Assembly (NCBI GenBank): GCA_002155105.1
Contig: MUZD01000004.1
Coordinates: 1 to 64,000, forward strand
Reading direction: 5' to 3'
Length of the DNA stretch: 64,000 nucleotides
DNA from: Sedimentibacter sp. SX930
GTDB lineage: Bacteria; Bacillota; Bacilli; Lactobacillales; Aerococcaceae
The notes under the pieces: generated by a model
The model's input: only the letters and a program-made list of their open reading frames with translations
What the model was told of the DNA's origin: nothing
Databases searched by the model: none
Part shown: one piece after another, positions 33,954-39,427 of the stretch
Layout: each line of letters begins with the position of its first letter
Position numbering within the stretch: the stretch's first letter is position 1
Made by a program: the position numbers and the translations under genes

Positions 33954-34805
33954 TCAGGCAGTCCAATGAGAGGGTCTTTGGATATGAGGGGGTAGCAAAG
34001 TCTTTTCATCACCCTTAGCCGAATTCATTTGCATTTGAGTCAAAAACATACTCGTAGATAAGTCTGCTCCCCTTAAATCAGCGTCACGCAAATCAGCCCC
34101 GATAAAATCCGCACCTCTTAAATCTGTGTCGCTCAAATCGGCAGCAATCAGATACGCTCCCCTCAAATTGATTGCCTTTAGATCTTGTCCACTTAAATTT
34201 TTCGCGATCCAGTCGGCTCTTTCATGATTATAATCCTTGGCTTTTTTAGGGTTGGATAGTTTTGAAGCCAACATTTCCCGAATATGCTTGCTGGTTTCCG
34301 ATAGCAACCCATTTAAGGGGAATCTGTACATCACTATATCCAAAGACAGCAGGTGATCAGCATCGCGTTTTGTCAGGCTCTGCAACTCCTTTAGCTGCAC
34401 GTTTAATTTCTCGGACAAATCCTGGGGTAATTCATATGACAAGGCTTCTGCCGCGTAGGCAATCATTTCATGGATTTGTTCCATAATCGGAAACACTTGG
34501 AACATTTTTGCTCCAATTTCAGGATCATCCCTCCAGTTTTGACCCTTAAACGTAACTTGGGAAACAACTTGTCCAGCACCCAAACAGTCAAACACAGTGC
34601 AGCCCTTAAAACCTTTCTCCCGTAAGTTAGCGTGAATTTGACACCCGTAATCGGATTGCAAATTGACGCAAGGACTGCCTGCCGGTTTGTTGATTGGAAA
34701 ATCGCTTGACGCTATAAGGTTGAGCGCTGTACAGCAGAGCCCAAAGCACTGCGAACAATCGGCCCTTAAACTTTCTCTAATATTTTTGGCTATTTCGTTA
34801 TCCAT
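33954..34805 (-). CDS. Cys-rich (YkgJ-like) and pentapeptide-repeat fusion protein
   Basis: 283 residues. The N-terminal part has a cysteine pattern (CSQCFGLCC near the start, then C in AGSPCVNL, YGCQIH, KGCTVFDC) resembling YkgJ-family zinc or iron clusters. The C-terminal third (about 205-260) is a pentapeptide-repeat coil: AINLRGAYLIAADLSDTDLR and on, with A(D/N)LxG repeats every five residues, forming a right-handed beta-helix. Pentapeptide proteins may mimic DNA or act in resistance; the fusion with a metal-like cluster is unusual. Start at 34805 with AAAGGA upstream at wider-than-usual spacing. Cytoplasmic. Confidence 0.78.
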   Translation of the reverse strand: MDNEIAKNIRESLRADCSQCFGLCCTALNLIASSDFPINKPAGSPCVNLQSDYGCQIHANLREKGFKGCTVFDCLGAGQVVSQVTFKGQNWRDDPEIGAKMFQVFPIMEQIHEMIAYAAEALSYELPQDLSEKLNVQLKELQSLTKRDADHLLSLDIVMYRFPLNGLLSETSKHIREMLASKLSNPKKAKDYNHERADWIAKNLSGQDLKAINLRGAYLIAADLSDTDLRGADFIGADLRDADLRGADLSTSMFLTQMQMNSAKGDEKTLLPPHIQRPSHWTA

Positions 34806-35002: not shown

Positions 35003-35015
35003 GATGTTCTATAAT
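35003..35015 (+). promoter_or_regulatory. Promoter of the photolyase gene
   Basis: GATGTTCTATAAT contains the -10 TATAAT at 35010-35015, 40 bases before the photolyase start. The same 13 bases occur before the gene at 54976. Confidence 0.5.
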
Positions 35016-35055: not shown

Positions 35056-36420
35056 ATGATACTGGAAGAAAGAATCAAGCAATTGAACGATAAGAACGTA
35101 GTGGCGGAGCGACCGTATGTCGTCTATTGGATGCAGAGTTCGCAGCGGGCGGAGTACAACCATGCATTGGAATATGCAATCCGTCAGGCCAACCGGCTCG
35201 AGAAGCCGCTGGTCGTCTACTTCGGGGTCACTGACGGCTTTCCGGAAGCCAATGAGCGCCACTATGCATTCATGCTGGAAGGGCTGAAGGAAACGAAGGA
35301 CGCATTGGAGCAGCGCGGCATCCAACTGCTGATCCGGAAAATATCGCCGGAACAAGGAGCTTTGGAAATTTCCAGATTGACGGCCTTGCTGGTTGTGGAC
35401 CGCGGCTATCTCAGAATTGAGCGGCAATGGCGTGTTGCCTTGGCCGAGGGTGCCGAATGCGCGGTCGTCCAGATTGAAAGCAACGTCGTTGTTCCGGTCG
35501 AGCTGGCTTCTCCCAAAGAGGAGTATTCCGCTGCGACCTTGCGCTCCAAACTGAAGAAAATCCTGCCGCAGTGTCTGGCACCATTGGAGGAGAATGTCTG
35601 CAGCCTTCCGTCCACCGCAGCGGAGCTACCTTTCGAGGCGTATGACGTTTCAAATACCGAACAAGCCTTAGCCGGCTTGGCTATCGATCGCAGTGTCCCG
35701 CGCGTTTCCGATTATATCGGCGGAACCGCGGAAGCAAAACGCTGGCTTGAGGATTTCATCGAAAATAAATTGGCCGGATACAGCGAACGGAAGAACCGTC
35801 CTGGTGAGTCCGTTACCTCAAACTTGAGCCCCTATCTCCATTTCGGCCAGATTTCGCCGCTCTATATCTACCGCAGACTGATGGGGATGGACAGCGAAAG
35901 TCAGCAGAGTTTCCTCGAGGAACTTGTCGTCAGAAGGGAGTTGGCCGTCAATTTCGTTTACTACAATGAAAAGTACGATTCCTTCGATGCCGTGCCGGAT
36001 TGGGCCAAGAAGACGCTGGCCAAGCACTTGGCGGATGAACGGGAATATCTGTATTCCTTGGCGGAATTGGAAGCGGCCAAAACCCACGACGACTATTGGA
36101 ATGCCGCGCAGCTGGAGATGAACCTGACCGGGAAAATGCACGGGTACATGCGGATGTACTGGGCCAAAAAAATTCTGGAGTGGAGCAGCACACCGGAAGA
36201 AGCCTATTGCAAAGCGATTTACCTGAACAACAAGTATCTGTTGGACGGCCGCGATCCGAACGGTTTCGCCGGGGTGAGCTGGTGCTTCGGCAAACATGAC
36301 CGACCTTGGGGGGAACGGGCCATCTTCGGGAATGTCCGTTTCATGAACGACAAAGGTCTGAAGCGCAAGTTCGACATGCAGCTGTATCTGGATCAGGTTG
36401 CGAAACGGTCGCGCAAATAA
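35056..36420 (+). CDS. Class II deoxyribodipyrimidine photolyase
   Basis: 454 residues. It repairs cyclobutane pyrimidine dimers using blue light through FAD and an antenna pigment. It matches the class II rather than class I type: RPYVVYWMQSSQRAEYNHAL at the start, the FAD-site stretch NLSPYLHFGQISP, and the C-terminal YLLDGRDPNGFAGVSWCF, GKHDRPWGERAIFGNVR signature. The Trp residues near the C-terminus can form the electron chain. RBS GGGGG before the ATG at 35056; an earlier in-frame ATG has none. It heads a same-strand group with DUF2238, DUF6448, signal peptidase and heliorhodopsin genes. Confidence 0.92.
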   Translation: MILEERIKQLNDKNVVAERPYVVYWMQSSQRAEYNHALEYAIRQANRLEKPLVVYFGVTDGFPEANERHYAFMLEGLKETKDALEQRGIQLLIRKISPEQGALEISRLTALLVVDRGYLRIERQWRVALAEGAECAVVQIESNVVVPVELASPKEEYSAATLRSKLKKILPQCLAPLEENVCSLPSTAAELPFEAYDVSNTEQALAGLAIDRSVPRVSDYIGGTAEAKRWLEDFIENKLAGYSERKNRPGESVTSNLSPYLHFGQISPLYIYRRLMGMDSESQQSFLEELVVRRELAVNFVYYNEKYDSFDAVPDWAKKTLAKHLADEREYLYSLAELEAAKTHDDYWNAAQLEMNLTGKMHGYMRMYWAKKILEWSSTPEEAYCKAIYLNNKYLLDGRDPNGFAGVSWCFGKHDRPWGERAIFGNVRFMNDKGLKRKFDMQLYLDQVAKRSRK

Positions 36421-36435
36421 AAGGAGGCGGAACGG

Positions 36436-37080
36436 ATGGCCGGAAATGGCAAAAAGGCAGAACCCTTGCATATAATCCTTTTGATGCTCTTCATCATAGC
36501 GTACCTTATTTCGGCCATCTGCCCGTTGGATCGGCTGGCTTGGATGGGTCAGATGACGCCTGCGCTCCTGCTCGTTTTCTTGTTGGTTGTGACTTACTGG
36601 AAGTTCCGTTTCAGCACTTTCGTCTATGTGATGGCTTTTCTGCATGCTTTGTTGTTGGTTTACGGCGCGCACTTTACTTATTCCCAGAACCCTTTGTTCA
36701 ATCAATGGAAAGAACAGTTCGGTTGGGAGCGCAATTACTTTGACCGGGTGGGGCATTTCGCCCAAGGTTTCGTGCCGGCTTTTTTGGCCAAGGAGTTTCT
36801 GCTGCGTGGCGGCTATGTCAAGAAAGGCAAGATGCTGACTCTCATCGTCATTCTGTCCTGCCTCGGCTTCAGCGCAGCCTATGAACTGAGTGAATTTGCG
36901 ATCGTCAAAATTATGGACGTGCCCGCTGATGCTGTCATGGGGACGCAGGGCGATGCCTTCGACAGCCTTTGGGATATGATTTGGGCATTGATCGGTGCGA
37001 GTCTGGCGGTGTTTGTGTTCGGGCCATTTCACGACAGCCAAATCGAAAAGATGAGGGATCCCGATGGACCGCTCCGTTAG
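36436..37080 (+). CDS. DUF2238 family membrane protein
   Basis: 214 residues with about five or six transmembrane segments. The segment FGWERNYFDRVGHFAQGFVP is the DUF2238 signature, with the later AAYELSEFAI and GTQGDAFDSLWDM stretches also typical. The family includes YjdF-like proteins of unknown role; conserved Asp, Arg and Glu residues in and near the membrane suggest ligand or ion handling. It starts 15 bases after photolyase with AAGGAGG, so the two genes are co-transcribed. Confidence 0.8.
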   Translation: MAGNGKKAEPLHIILLMLFIIAYLISAICPLDRLAWMGQMTPALLLVFLLVVTYWKFRFSTFVYVMAFLHALLLVYGAHFTYSQNPLFNQWKEQFGWERNYFDRVGHFAQGFVPAFLAKEFLLRGGYVKKGKMLTLIVILSCLGFSAAYELSEFAIVKIMDVPADAVMGTQGDAFDSLWDMIWALIGASLAVFVFGPFHDSQIEKMRDPDGPLR

Positions 37081-37100
37081 CCAGATTTCAACTGTAGGCC

Positions 37101-37106
37101 TATAAT
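37101..37106 (+). promoter_or_regulatory. -10 promoter element before DUF6448
   Basis: TATAAT in the only gap (37081-37168) of the photolyase-heliorhodopsin group. It could start a second transcript covering DUF6448, signal peptidase and heliorhodopsin. No good -35 is visible. Confidence 0.35.
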
Positions 37107-37168
37107 TAAGATGAAGCTAAGGTTTCGAGTGGTAGCTGTTTTTTGTTTGCGAGAAGGAGGAAAATGAA

Positions 37169-37759
37169 ATGGAACTGATGCTGGTAATGGCAGCCGTTGT
37201 ATTTTTCAGCGTTCTTTTTGTACCTGTGAAAGCAAAAGCACATTGTGACACCATGGATGGACCGACAGCTGTTGACGGGAAACGAGCACTGGAGACCTGC
37301 AACGTTAATTATGCGTTAAAATGGATCCTTCCGGAGCACGAAGAAGAACTAAAGGAAATCTTTGCTTTGAGCAGTAAGGTCAGGGCACTCGGGCCGGACG
37401 CAAAGGAATTGGCGGACAGATATTTCCTTGAGAATCTTGTCAGAATGCATCGGGCCGGGGAAGGCGCCTCCTTTGAAGGGTTGAAACCTTCGGGAACCCC
37501 CATCGATGAAAAAGTTGCGGCAGCCGATAAATGCATCGAAGTAGGGAACTTATCCCCATTGGAGGGGCTGTTGCCCCATGAAGAAATCCATGAACTGGAA
37601 GGGAAATTCAAAAAAGCTTTGTCACTGAAAGAATTCGCTGTTGATGACGTTGAAGCCGGGAGAGCCTACATAGAGGCTTATGTCGATTTCTTCAAGACGG
37701 TGGAAGGTGAACACCATGCACATAAACACGATCATGGCCATGCTGCGCACCCGCACTGA
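37169..37759 (+). CDS. Secreted DUF6448-type His-tailed protein
   Basis: 196 residues. A signal peptide (hydrophobic about 2-20, likely cut after VKAKA) is followed by HCDTMDGPTAVDGKRALETCNVNYALKW, then a helical domain with the segments EHEEELKEIF and RMHRAGEGASFEGLKPSG. The C-terminus is a poly-His tail (HHAHKHDHGHAAHPH), suggesting metal binding outside the cell. I assign it to DUF6448 from memory of the N-terminal motif. The last 44 bases overlap the signal peptidase gene, giving tight coupling. Confidence 0.7.
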   Translation: MELMLVMAAVVFFSVLFVPVKAKAHCDTMDGPTAVDGKRALETCNVNYALKWILPEHEEELKEIFALSSKVRALGPDAKELADRYFLENLVRMHRAGEGASFEGLKPSGTPIDEKVAAADKCIEVGNLSPLEGLLPHEEIHELEGKFKKALSLKEFAVDDVEAGRAYIEAYVDFFKTVEGEHHAHKHDHGHAAHPH

Positions 37760-38252
37760 TCTGGAACAGGGCATTCTGTATATTTCGTTGATTATTGCCG
37801 CCGTTTCCGCCGCTGGACTCGTCCGAAAACATCTATTTTTCCTTACTGTGGTGCAGTCTGATTCGATGTATCCCGCGCTGCGGCCGAAGGATTTGGGAGT
37901 CACGCTTCGCATCCATTGCGTAAGGGAAATCAAAAGAGGCGACATCCTCGTTTTTTATTCCGCTGAGCTTAAGGATAGGTTGGTGAAAAGGGTCATCGGA
38001 TTGCCGCATGACCAGATTGTCTGTGAACAGGATGGTGCCGTTTACGTCAACGGCAAAAAATTGGAAGAACCCTATCTCAAGCAAACGGATGGGAAAAGGT
38101 CGGAATATCGGGTGCCGGCAGGCAAGTATTTTTTGTTGGGGGACAACCGGGCGCATTCATATGACAGTCGTTCCTTTCTTGATCCGTTCATCTCGGAAAA
38201 GGCTATCCAAGGAAGACTCATTTTTTCCCTCGTGCCATTCCGAAAAATCTGA
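37716..38252 (+). CDS. lepB: Type I signal peptidase
   Basis: 178 residues, one N-terminal membrane anchor (about 20-36) and an extracytoplasmic catalytic domain. The serine-lysine dyad is visible as QSDSMYP (Ser50) and LVKRVIG (Lys91), and GDNRAHSYDSRSF is the later conserved box. It removes signal peptides from secreted proteins. The start at 37716 has GGAAGGTGA 5 bases upstream, inside the end of the DUF6448 gene. It probably serves as a dedicated peptidase for its secreted neighbour, though it could be one of several housekeeping copies. Heliorhodopsin follows after 68 bases. Confidence 0.9.
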   Translation: MHINTIMAMLRTRTDLEQGILYISLIIAAVSAAGLVRKHLFFLTVVQSDSMYPALRPKDLGVTLRIHCVREIKRGDILVFYSAELKDRLVKRVIGLPHDQIVCEQDGAVYVNGKKLEEPYLKQTDGKRSEYRVPAGKYFLLGDNRAHSYDSRSFLDPFISEKAIQGRLIFSLVPFRKI

Positions 38253-38320
38253 TCGGAACGATAAAGCAGGTCCGCTATACAATCAGTTCATTTTCTTAAG
38301 AGAAAGGAAGGTGCATCATC

Positions 38321-39112
38321 ATGAAAGAGATTACGACAGAAAAGCTCCGTCGCTTCAATATGATCATGGGAGGACTCCACCTGGTCCAAGGGATTGCGAT
38401 GCTGTTCTTGGCAACGAACGTCATCCAGAAAATCGGTGAGTTCAGCCCGGAAATCAGCCAGTTCTATCTGGCCTTCAATCCCGAAACGCGCTCACTGGAA
38501 ACGGCCTCGCGTGTCCTGTTTGAATTGCCGTTCGGTATGCTTGTCGCTTCGTTCTTGTTCATTTCCGCTATCGCGCATGCCTTGATTTCCATTCCGAAAA
38601 ATCTGAATGCAATCTATAATGCCGATTTGGAAAAGGGCATCAATAAATTCCGCTGGTTCGAGTATGCGCTCAGCTCATCCATAATGATTGTTCTGATTGC
38701 GACCTTGTTCGGCATCTACGATATCGCTTCGCTCATTCTGATCTTTATCGTGAACGCCACTATGAATCTCTTCGGGCTCGTGATGGAACAGCTGAATGTG
38801 GGGCATTCAAAAGACAACATCCAATGGGGGCCGTTCATCTGGGGCTCGATTGCCGGAATTGCGCCATGGATCGCCATTTTGCTCTACATGTTCGGGACCG
38901 GTAATTTCGGTGAGGTGCCTTGGTTTGTCTGGGCAATCGTCGGCACTTATTTCGTTGCTTTCAACACTTTCCCGATCAATATGATTTTGCAGTACAAGAA
39001 AGTCGGGAAATGGGCGGACTACCTCTATGGGGAGCGGGTCTATATCGTGCTGAGCTTGGTTGCGAAATCGATTCTTGCCTGGCTCGTGCTTTTCGGTGCG
39101 ATGCAGCCATAA
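38321..39112 (+). CDS. Heliorhodopsin
   Basis: 263 residues, seven transmembrane helices, inverted topology as in all heliorhodopsins. Key residues can be placed: Lys249 in helix G (SLVAKSILAW) is the retinal Schiff-base lysine, Glu114 in RWFEYALSS is the counterion, and His20 (GGLHLVQG) and His86 (AIAHALI) match the conserved pair of the family. The QYKKVGKWADYLYGERVYI stretch before helix G is also typical. Heliorhodopsins bind retinal, have long photocycles and do not appear to pump ions; roles in light sensing or in regulating partner enzymes are proposed. RBS AAGGAAGG precedes the ATG. The genes upstream include a class II photolyase. Confidence 0.93.
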   Translation: MKEITTEKLRRFNMIMGGLHLVQGIAMLFLATNVIQKIGEFSPEISQFYLAFNPETRSLETASRVLFELPFGMLVASFLFISAIAHALISIPKNLNAIYNADLEKGINKFRWFEYALSSSIMIVLIATLFGIYDIASLILIFIVNATMNLFGLVMEQLNVGHSKDNIQWGPFIWGSIAGIAPWIAILLYMFGTGNFGEVPWFVWAIVGTYFVAFNTFPINMILQYKKVGKWADYLYGERVYIVLSLVAKSILAWLVLFGAMQP

Positions 39113-39136
39113 TTCAGGGAGGCTTAAGGTACTGTC

Positions 39137-39191
39137 GTTTACAAAAAAATTACAGTGTTTTTTGATACAGTTTACAAAAGAGTTGTATAGT
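39137..39191 (+). promoter_or_regulatory. Orphan promoter with 10-base direct repeats
   Basis: GTTTACAAAA occurs at 39137-39146 and 39170-39179, exactly 33 bases apart, around a promoter TTGATA (39162-39167), 18-base spacer, TATAGT (39186-39191). The transcript would enter a strong terminator about 60 bases later (39255). The gap 39113-39427 has no convincing gene. Confidence 0.5.
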
Positions 39192-39254
39192 GAGTGTGTG
39201 GAGGAAATGTATTTTGTTTCTGCTTTACTTATATTTGAATGACATGCTTCAGCC

Positions 39255-39314
39255 GGACAGGTTGGGCGTCCACCAGAAGGAATCTGATGGATGCCCAACC
39301 TGTCCGTTTTTTTG
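39255..39314 (+). terminator. Strong Rho-independent terminator
   Basis: GGACAGGTTGGGC pairs with GCCCAACCTGTCC, with further inner pairing, then a run of seven T. It either ends the short transcript from the orphan promoter at 39162 or acts as an attenuator upstream of the gene at 39428. Confidence 0.85.
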
Positions 39315-39427
39315 CGGTTTTAAGTGAGAATGCCATTATTGGCAATCGCGAGAGCGAAGGGATACAATGGTTTTGAAGAAAAGAATGCAGTTGGGATCCA
39401 AATTGTCAGAAAGGACGGGGAAGAACA

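What the first reader, a model, noticed from the sequence alone, without database searches (positions are those of the whole stretch)
35056..39112. Heliorhodopsin encoded beside a class II photolyase, DUF2238, DUF6448 and a signal peptidase
Five same-strand genes over 4 kb: photolyase, DUF2238 membrane protein, secreted His-tailed DUF6448 protein, type I signal peptidase and heliorhodopsin (retinal Lys249, counterion Glu114, conserved His20 and His86 all present). Seen directly: gene order, spacing (15 bases, one 88-base gap with a -10, a 44-base overlap and 68 bases) and motifs. From memory of the literature: heliorhodopsin of Trichococcus flocculiformis has been reported to enhance photolyase activity. 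New here is the suggestion that the other three genes belong to the same light and repair unit, with the signal peptidase and the metal-binding secreted protein acting on the outside.
Basis: partly seen in the sequence, partly recalled or inferred. Interest (0 to 1): 0.88.

Follow-up and report, generated by a model that had tools for sequence, protein, structure and literature searches.

The report
Light-repair operon carrying a mobile passenger
A known bacterial light-sensing protein and DNA-repair enzyme sit in one gene cluster, and two of the five genes in it are a detachable, plasmid-type pair (a secreted protein and its own signal-cutting enzyme) whose relatives elsewhere sit among metal and stress genes rather than light genes.

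Summary
The five genes, spacings and residues are as described. The genome is a Trichococcus. Photolyase, DUF2238 and heliorhodopsin stand in this order in 12 of 13 Trichococcus genomes held, and heliorhodopsin-photolyase binding and the operon drawing are in print (Shim 2022, PMC9769723). New here: (1) DUF6448 and the signal peptidase are not part of a conserved light unit: DUF6448 is in 5 of 13 Trichococcus genomes and the pair in 0 of 73 heliorhodopsin loci outside the genus; relatives lie on plasmids and phage-type contigs, in 8 of 10 regions read among iron, nitric-oxide or metal genes. (2) Its peptidase is a lineage apart from the housekeeping ones, shared with two plasmid pairs. (3) In 18 of 19 DUF6448 proteins the predicted cut leaves His-Cys-Asp at the mature N-terminus, as in nickel superoxide dismutase, though no homology to that enzyme was found. 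(4) Of the published photolyase contacts E97, R162 and K227, this heliorhodopsin keeps only K227. Against a mere passenger: all 5 Trichococcus copies lie within one gene of heliorhodopsin, in two layouts. Reading: a known light-repair operon carrying a mobile envelope metal/redox pair. First interpretation: partly supported.

The parts
35010..35015 (+). -10 like TATAAT of the photolyase promoter, in a stretch (ATGTTCTATAAT) conserved in 12 of 12 Trichococcus aligned (G009 not included)
   Evidence: no -35 assigned
35056..36420 (+). class II-type CPD photolyase
   Evidence: best model phr2, below its curated cut-off
36436..37080 (+). DUF2238 membrane protein, near heliorhodopsin in all 13 Trichococcus
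37101..37106 (+). TATAAT of a likely internal promoter that goes with the DUF6448-peptidase pair
   Evidence: in 4 of 4 genomes with the same layout; also in the gap of G002, which lacks the pair; not in the gap of the 6 other pair-less genomes printed
37169..37759 (+). DUF6448 secreted protein: signal peptide, predicted mature His-Cys-Asp N-terminus, His-rich tail
37169..37240 (+). predicted signal peptide ending Ala-Lys-Ala
   Evidence: cut site by the A-x-A rule, no predictor run
37241..37249 (+). codons for invariant His-Cys-Asp, predicted first residues of the mature protein
   Evidence: 19 of 19 have HCD; 18 of 19 right after (A/V)-x-A
37716..38252 (+). signal peptidase I of a lineage that accompanies DUF6448; overlaps its end by 44 bases
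38321..39112 (+). heliorhodopsin; K249, E114, H20, H86; A97, H162, K227 at the published photolyase-contact positions
39254..39306 (+). strong hairpin followed by a T run, likely terminator; conserved in 12 of 12 Trichococcus aligned, single copy in the genome
   Evidence: (85-base stretch folds at -47.0 kcal/mol); not among the sites listed by the scan

Best explanation
The locus is composite. Photolyase, DUF2238 and heliorhodopsin are the resident operon: heliorhodopsin binds the photolyase and raises repair in light (shown in vitro and in E. coli for T. flocculiformis by others; inferred here). DUF6448 with its signal peptidase is a mobile two-gene module that came to lie beside heliorhodopsin. 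The peptidase, a lineage of its own, cuts the DUF6448 signal peptide after A-x-A and so creates a mature protein beginning His-Cys-Asp. I infer that this new N-terminus, with the invariant His70/Arg71/Glu74 region (mature numbering), binds a redox metal outside the membrane and protects the envelope under iron, nitric-oxide or oxidative stress. Shown by computation: gene content, presence and absence, separate peptidase lineage, invariance and placement of HCD. Inferred: cleavage, metal binding, stress role, mobility as the cause of the patchy presence, and transcription of the pair and heliorhodopsin from an internal promoter.
For: Photolyase, DUF2238 and heliorhodopsin in this order in 12 of 13 Trichococcus genomes: directly consecutive in 8, with the pair (and DUF4332 in G005) between in 4. 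DUF6448 in 5 of 13; in none of 73 outside heliorhodopsin loci by tblastn or six-frame profile search, nor the peptidase; in 1 of 299 class and 3 of 398 phylum genomes sampled, own included in both; but on 47 of 72,556 plasmid records. Of 10 plasmid regions read, 8 have iron, nitric-oxide or metal genes nearby (Dps, Ric, hemerythrin, VIT1/CCC1, FetB, ferric reductase, hcp, flavorubredoxin, P-type ATPase); not 30 and 36; three of the 8 (35, 38, 40) carry nearly the same DUF6448. tblastn finds no heliorhodopsin in the 10 regions. The peptidase is adjacent on T. halophilus and Aerococcus plasmids and on the one Listeria-phage-labelled fragment read. The 7 module peptidases split from the housekeeping ones with support 100. 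HCD 19 of 19. A LysM domain on the T. halophilus protein fits an envelope location. GC3 of DUF6448 0.49 against 0.67 for heliorhodopsin.
Against: All 5 Trichococcus copies of DUF6448 lie within one gene of heliorhodopsin, in two layouts, and in G009 the pair stays with heliorhodopsin although the photolyase is on another contig; this speaks for a functional tie. Gain and loss are not told apart: the six-gene tree has weak inner support, and G002 without the pair keeps a TATAAT and a carrier-like DUF2238 tail. G381 and G674 carry DUF6448 with no signal peptide (MMPPHCD). The peptidase is not found beside DUF6448 in 10 of the 12 non-Trichococcus DUF6448 loci, so it is not generally needed. The peptidase tree samples few signal peptidases. 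No metal, cleavage or expression data exist here. The plasmid gene tables are incomplete.
Confidence: 0.6

Rival explanations
1. One reading: all five genes form one light and repair unit, the peptidase and the metal-binding secreted protein acting on the outer face of heliorhodopsin, for example by buffering a metal or radicals made in light.
For: All 5 Trichococcus DUF6448 copies lie within one gene of heliorhodopsin, in two different layouts; the overlap of DUF6448 and peptidase is kept in 4 of 4 genomes with the first layout.
Against: 8 of 13 Trichococcus genomes lack DUF6448, including T. flocculiformis (G010) where the photolyase effect was measured; 0 of 73 outside loci have it; most plasmid copies read sit among metal and stress genes.
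Confidence: 0.15
2. Plain hitch-hiking: the region around heliorhodopsin is a changeable spot where genes come and go, with no functional tie between the module and the light genes.
For: DUF4332 lies between peptidase and heliorhodopsin in T. alkaliphilus; HP167 is found in some Trichococcus only; the pair comes and goes; DUF6448 of a Peptoclostridium plasmid is nearly as close to the window's (68%) as that of G009 (74%).
Against: Two layouts, both beside heliorhodopsin; an insertion at random would not be expected to meet the same neighbour twice, unless one layout arose from the other by rearrangement.
Confidence: 0.2
3. DUF6448 is a diverged nickel superoxide dismutase and the peptidase its SodX-like maturation protease.
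For: Predicted mature N-terminus His-Cys-Asp in 18 of 19, the same first three residues as SodN; the peptidase matches the SodX model weakly (28.6 bits).
Against: The place of the second nickel-binding Cys (position 6, its role recalled) holds Asp, Gln or Lys; profile comparison finds nothing (E 0.2 over 17 columns away from the N-terminus); the peptidase is under the SodX cut-off of 63.25 and over that of ordinary signal peptidase I.
Confidence: 0.05

Closest known systems
Trichococcus flocculiformis heliorhodopsin-photolyase operon (Shim 2022, PMC9769723; parts 1-3 of 5 of the text and passages seen)
   Same: Class II photolyase, DUF2238 and heliorhodopsin in the same order; HIT and DUF4332 genes around (loci L026/L033). 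The Fig. 2A legend, on T. flocculiformis, T. collinsii and T. pasteurii, already lists signal peptidase I and a hypothetical protein.
   Different: T. flocculiformis (G010) lacks DUF6448 and the peptidase at the locus. Heliorhodopsin contact residues E97 and R162 are A97 and H162 here.
Photolyase- and DUF2238-containing groups of heliorhodopsin operons (PMC11109279, passages seen)
   Same: Photolyase and DUF2238 in one heliorhodopsin operon.
   Different: The text does not name DUF6448 (0 occurrences).
Photolyase genes beside zinc-finger heliorhodopsins (Bulzu 2021, PMC8612252, passages seen)
   Same: Photolyase among the neighbours of heliorhodopsins in monoderms.
   Different: Concerns heliorhodopsins with an N-terminal zinc-finger extension; Trichococcus, DUF2238 and signal peptidase are not named in the text (0 occurrences each).
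DUF6448 + lepB pairs on Tetragenococcus halophilus pTHF and Aerococcus urinaeequi pT4302
   Same: Same two genes in the same order; peptidases on the module side of the tree.
   Different: On plasmids, no heliorhodopsin in the stretch read, metal and stress neighbours; a LysM domain (T. halophilus) or a hydrophobic tail (Aerococcus) instead of a bare His tail.
Nickel superoxide dismutase SodN with protease SodX (recalled; SodN letters checked)
   Same: N-terminal His-Cys-Asp exposed by proteolysis (SodN processing recalled).
   Different: No Cys6, no profile similarity, different peptidase family model.

Membership tests
Heliorhodopsin (PF18761 / NF038020) | Profile match over the curated cut-off | tested here: met
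   333.2 bits vs 26.7; 303.8 vs 100
Heliorhodopsin (PF18761 / NF038020) | Retinal Lys, Glu counterion, two His (roles recalled) | tested here: met
   K249, E114, H20, H86; of 85 relatives aligned 83, 85, 84 and 85 show them, the other 2 and 1 are not covered there
Heliorhodopsin (PF18761 / NF038020) | Inverted topology, long photocycle | not testable with these tools
   needs protein
Class II CPD photolyase (TIGR00591) | Full-length match over the curated cut-off | tested here: inconclusive
   best model, residues 3-447 of 454, 524.2 bits but cut-off 550.05; 0 of 13 Trichococcus reach it, including T. flocculiformis, published as class II
DUF2238 (PF09997) | Profile match over the curated cut-off | tested here: met
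   145.4 vs 26.4 bits, profile 1-140 of 140
DUF6448 (PF20046) | Profile match over the curated cut-off | tested here: met
   182.7 vs 27 bits, profile 1-146 of 147
Signal peptidase I (TIGR02227 / PF10502) | Profile match; Ser-Met-x-Pro and Lys-Arg-Val-Ile-Gly motifs (their catalytic role recalled) | tested here: met
   127.2 vs 47 bits; both motifs in 7 of 7 module peptidases
SodX nickel-SOD maturation protease (TIGR02754) | Profile match over the cut-off | tested here: not met
   28.6 vs 63.25 bits
Nickel superoxide dismutase (PF09055) | His1-Cys2-Asp3 at the mature N-terminus | tested here: met
   18 of 19 by the A-x-A rule; cleavage itself not shown
Nickel superoxide dismutase (PF09055) | Cys6 of the nickel hook | tested here: not met
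   Asp, Gln or Lys at that place
Nickel superoxide dismutase (PF09055) | Profile similarity | tested here: not met
   hhalign E 0.2, 17 columns, NiSOD side of only 3 sequences; no Sod_Ni hit at E<=1 for 3 DUF6448 proteins
Nickel superoxide dismutase (PF09055) | Four-helix SodN fold | tested here: inconclusive
   all-helical model pLDDT 77; no Foldseek match under 0.001; VIA best Z 6.3
Published heliorhodopsin-photolyase interface (E97, R162, K227) | All three residues | tested here: not met
   A97, H162, K227 here; E/R/K only in 3 of 13 Trichococcus

The most novel reading that the evidence does not exclude
DUF6448 is an unrecognised class of secreted metalloprotein whose metal site is created by signal peptide removal (N-terminal His-Cys-Asp), with a dedicated signal peptidase in lactic-acid-bacterial relatives, spread by plasmids and phages; in Trichococcus it has been tied to heliorhodopsin, so that light sensing and envelope metal/redox defence share one locus.
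Probability: 0.2. Interest if true: 0.75.

Novelty: new variant of a known kind. Interest (0 to 1): 0.48.

Why it matters
It separates the heliorhodopsin-photolyase operon, which is known, from a passenger module that would be mistaken for part of it. It gives DUF6448, for which a full-text search of the held library found no paper, a testable mechanism. It also shows that the residue reported as essential for photolyase binding (R162) is kept in only 3 of 13 Trichococcus heliorhodopsins, although 12 of the 13 stand in line with a photolyase. K227 is kept in 13 of 13 Trichococcus and in 10 of 10 outside loci with a photolyase within 250 bases, against 19 of 63 others, so natural variants offer a ready test of the binding model.

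Tried and rejected
NiSOD homology for DUF6448: rejected as membership, kept only as a likeness of the N-terminus. No SodN row is among those shown by the structural comparisons, which is not evidence of a different fold. DUF2238 structure: model pLDDT 57, too poor, so no fold search was run; no solved relative by sequence at E<=1. DUF6448 solved relatives: none credible. RNA families in 30-45 kb: none over gathering score. Single-sequence queries of DUF6448 and DUF2238 in viral contigs: none; the DUF6448 alignment found two. K227 association: three positions looked at, loci not independent by descent (8 parsimony changes for near-photolyase, 11 for K227), so the Fisher value of 3e-5 (near set) overstates it; with all 16 photolyase loci it is 12 of 16 against 17 of 57 (0.003). 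Position 162 K/R: near set 8 of 10 against 37 of 63 (0.30), all 16: 14 of 16 against 31 of 57 (0.02). K or R at 227: near 10 of 10 against 38 of 63 (0.01), all 16: 13 of 16 against 35 of 57 (0.23) (all). I counted 18 of 73 photolyase-like hits and dropped two at 24-25% identity (L035, L056) as another class. The tool labels G346 'same species', but its heliorhodopsin is 94% identical and matches the T. flocculiformis group at 97/162, so I rest nothing on that label. G006 and G007 are incomplete genomes (63% and 51%); the pair is absent at their locus, elsewhere it could be missed. In one search each pair of tandem housekeeping peptidase loci yielded the same copy twice, which does not touch the split.
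Full report
What is there. The window lies in a Trichococcus genome: the nearest named relatives of the heliorhodopsin are seven Trichococcus records at 95-98%, and the G handles below are named by matching contig lengths. The photolyase is class II by best model, though under that model's cut-off like all 13 Trichococcus copies.

What is conserved in the genus. Heliorhodopsin is in 13 of 13 genomes (12 of 12 plus G346), DUF2238 in 13 of 13, class II-type photolyase in 13 of 13. Photolyase, DUF2238 and heliorhodopsin stand in this order in 12 of 13: directly consecutive in 8, with the DUF6448-peptidase pair between in 4. In G009 the photolyase is on another contig, while DUF2238 (55% identical) lies about 1 kb from heliorhodopsin. 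DUF6448 is in 5 of 13: the window's genome, G004 (T. collinsii), G005 (T. alkaliphilus), G008 and G009. In the first four the order is photolyase, DUF2238, DUF6448, peptidase, heliorhodopsin, with DUF4332 between peptidase and heliorhodopsin in G005. In G009 the order is heliorhodopsin, DUF6448, peptidase, HP167, DUF4332. A tree of six joined genes scatters presence among absences with weak support, so gain and loss cannot be told apart. The four genomes with the first layout share a CCTATAAT stretch before DUF6448; T. patagoniensis (G002), which lacks the pair, still has a TATAAT in its DUF2238-heliorhodopsin gap and a DUF2238 tail like that of the carriers, a possible trace of loss.

What is conserved outside the genus. 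Class II photolyase-like genes (36-52% identity to the window's) are in 16 of 73, ten of them with hit ends within 250 bases: nine divergent and one (L098) directly downstream of heliorhodopsin on the same strand; six more at 1.7-4.2 kb. With at most about one such gene per genome of 2 Mb or more, fewer than one would be expected (my estimate, no control run). DUF2238 is in 2 of 73 and not adjacent; DUF6448 and the peptidase in 0 of 73 by tblastn at 1e-3 and by profile in six frames at 0.01. In one other genome of the family and one of another family in the order (G027, G044) tblastn finds none of the four other genes in the 17.5-18 kb around heliorhodopsin.

The photolyase contact residues. 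Shim 2022 (parts 1-3 of 5 of the text, and passages) reports that R162Q and K227Q abolish photolyase binding and that E97Q weakens it. The window's heliorhodopsin has A97, H162, K227. E97 with R162 occurs only in G001, G010 (T. flocculiformis) and G346; nine of 13 are A/H/K and G009 is D/K/K. K227 is in all 13 and in 10 of 10 outside loci with a photolyase within 250 bases, against 19 of 63 others; position 162 is K or R in 8 of 10 against 37 of 63, which is not a significant difference. Shared descent inflates these contrasts.

What the pair is elsewhere. DUF6448 is rare in sampled genomes (1 of 299 in the class, 3 of 398 in the phylum, own genome included in both) but is on 47 of 72,556 plasmid records, on two IMG/VR contigs, one of which has a phage terminase and portal, and on 2 of 50,697 phage records, both short and labelled Listeria phage. 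I read 10 of the 47 plasmid regions, chosen to span the taxa. Eight have iron, nitric-oxide or metal genes: Tetragenococcus halophilus, Aerococcus, Sinorhizobium, Salmonella Cubana, T. osmophilus, Marinobacter, Pelobacter, Shewanella; the DUF6448 of 35, 38 and 40 are nearly the same. Peptoclostridium and Serratia do not, beyond a cation transporter some 6 kb away in the latter. tblastn finds no heliorhodopsin in any of the 10. Two of the 10 have the signal peptidase adjacent, as does the one Listeria-phage-labelled record read. The window genome has three signal peptidases of this Pfam family; the module ones of five Trichococcus and two plasmids split from the housekeeping ones with support 100.

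Mechanism. In 19 of 19 DUF6448 proteins HCD is invariant, with G7, P8, H70, R71, E74, G75, G80 and R141 (mature numbering), and in 18 of 19 it follows directly on an (A/V)-x-A site; several of the 19 are close relatives, so by my reading of the tree about a dozen distinct lineages. The exception, G381, has no signal peptide. A signal peptidase cut there exposes His-Cys-Asp, as in nickel superoxide dismutase, but nothing else links the families. The AlphaFold model is all-helical but for single-residue bridges (pLDDT 77, pTM 0.72), with no clear relative. Ends differ: His-rich tail in Trichococcus, LysM in T. halophilus, a hydrophobic tail in Aerococcus. I infer an envelope metal or redox protein made active by removal of its signal peptide, with a dedicated peptidase in part of the family.

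Verdict. The light part is known. The DUF6448-peptidase pair is best read as a mobile module that in this genus sits beside heliorhodopsin in two layouts. Whether that neighbourhood is functional is open; the five-gene unit as proposed is not conserved.

Noticed in passing
window 39113-39320: Downstream of heliorhodopsin a promoter-like TTGATA/TATAGT (39162-39191) lies in a stretch conserved in 12 of 12 Trichococcus, followed by a strong single-copy hairpin with T run about 110 bases further on: a possible small RNA or a stand-alone terminator.
   Followed up: partly
L015 / L019 (G002 contig 16): The genome G002 has a second, 36% identical heliorhodopsin on another contig; foreign gene or contamination not settled.
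   Followed up: no
L035-L043 and others: Heliorhodopsins of Anaerolineaceae, Clostridia and Limnochordia MAGs are 80-83% identical to the Trichococcus one, closer than those of two genomes of its own order (58-59%), which suggests horizontal transfer.
   Followed up: no
L168 (NZ_CP141705.1): A heliorhodopsin gene on a 10.5 kb mobilizable Lactococcus petauri plasmid beside an IS6 transposase.
   Followed up: no
L023 921-5323 and 8632-9075: In G009 the heliorhodopsin locus has two amine-oxidase/desaturase-like FAD genes, a protein that looks TspO-like to me (no Pfam hit) and a divergent pyridoxamine-oxidase-like gene; the latter kind is also listed near DUF6448.
   Followed up: partly
L147 (IMG/VR contig): DUF6448 on a contig with gpA-type terminase and lambda-type portal genes.
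   Followed up: no
window 33954-34805 (-): Pentapeptide-repeat protein with a cysteine-rich N-terminal part, opposite strand upstream of the photolyase; found in some Trichococcus loci only.
   Followed up: no
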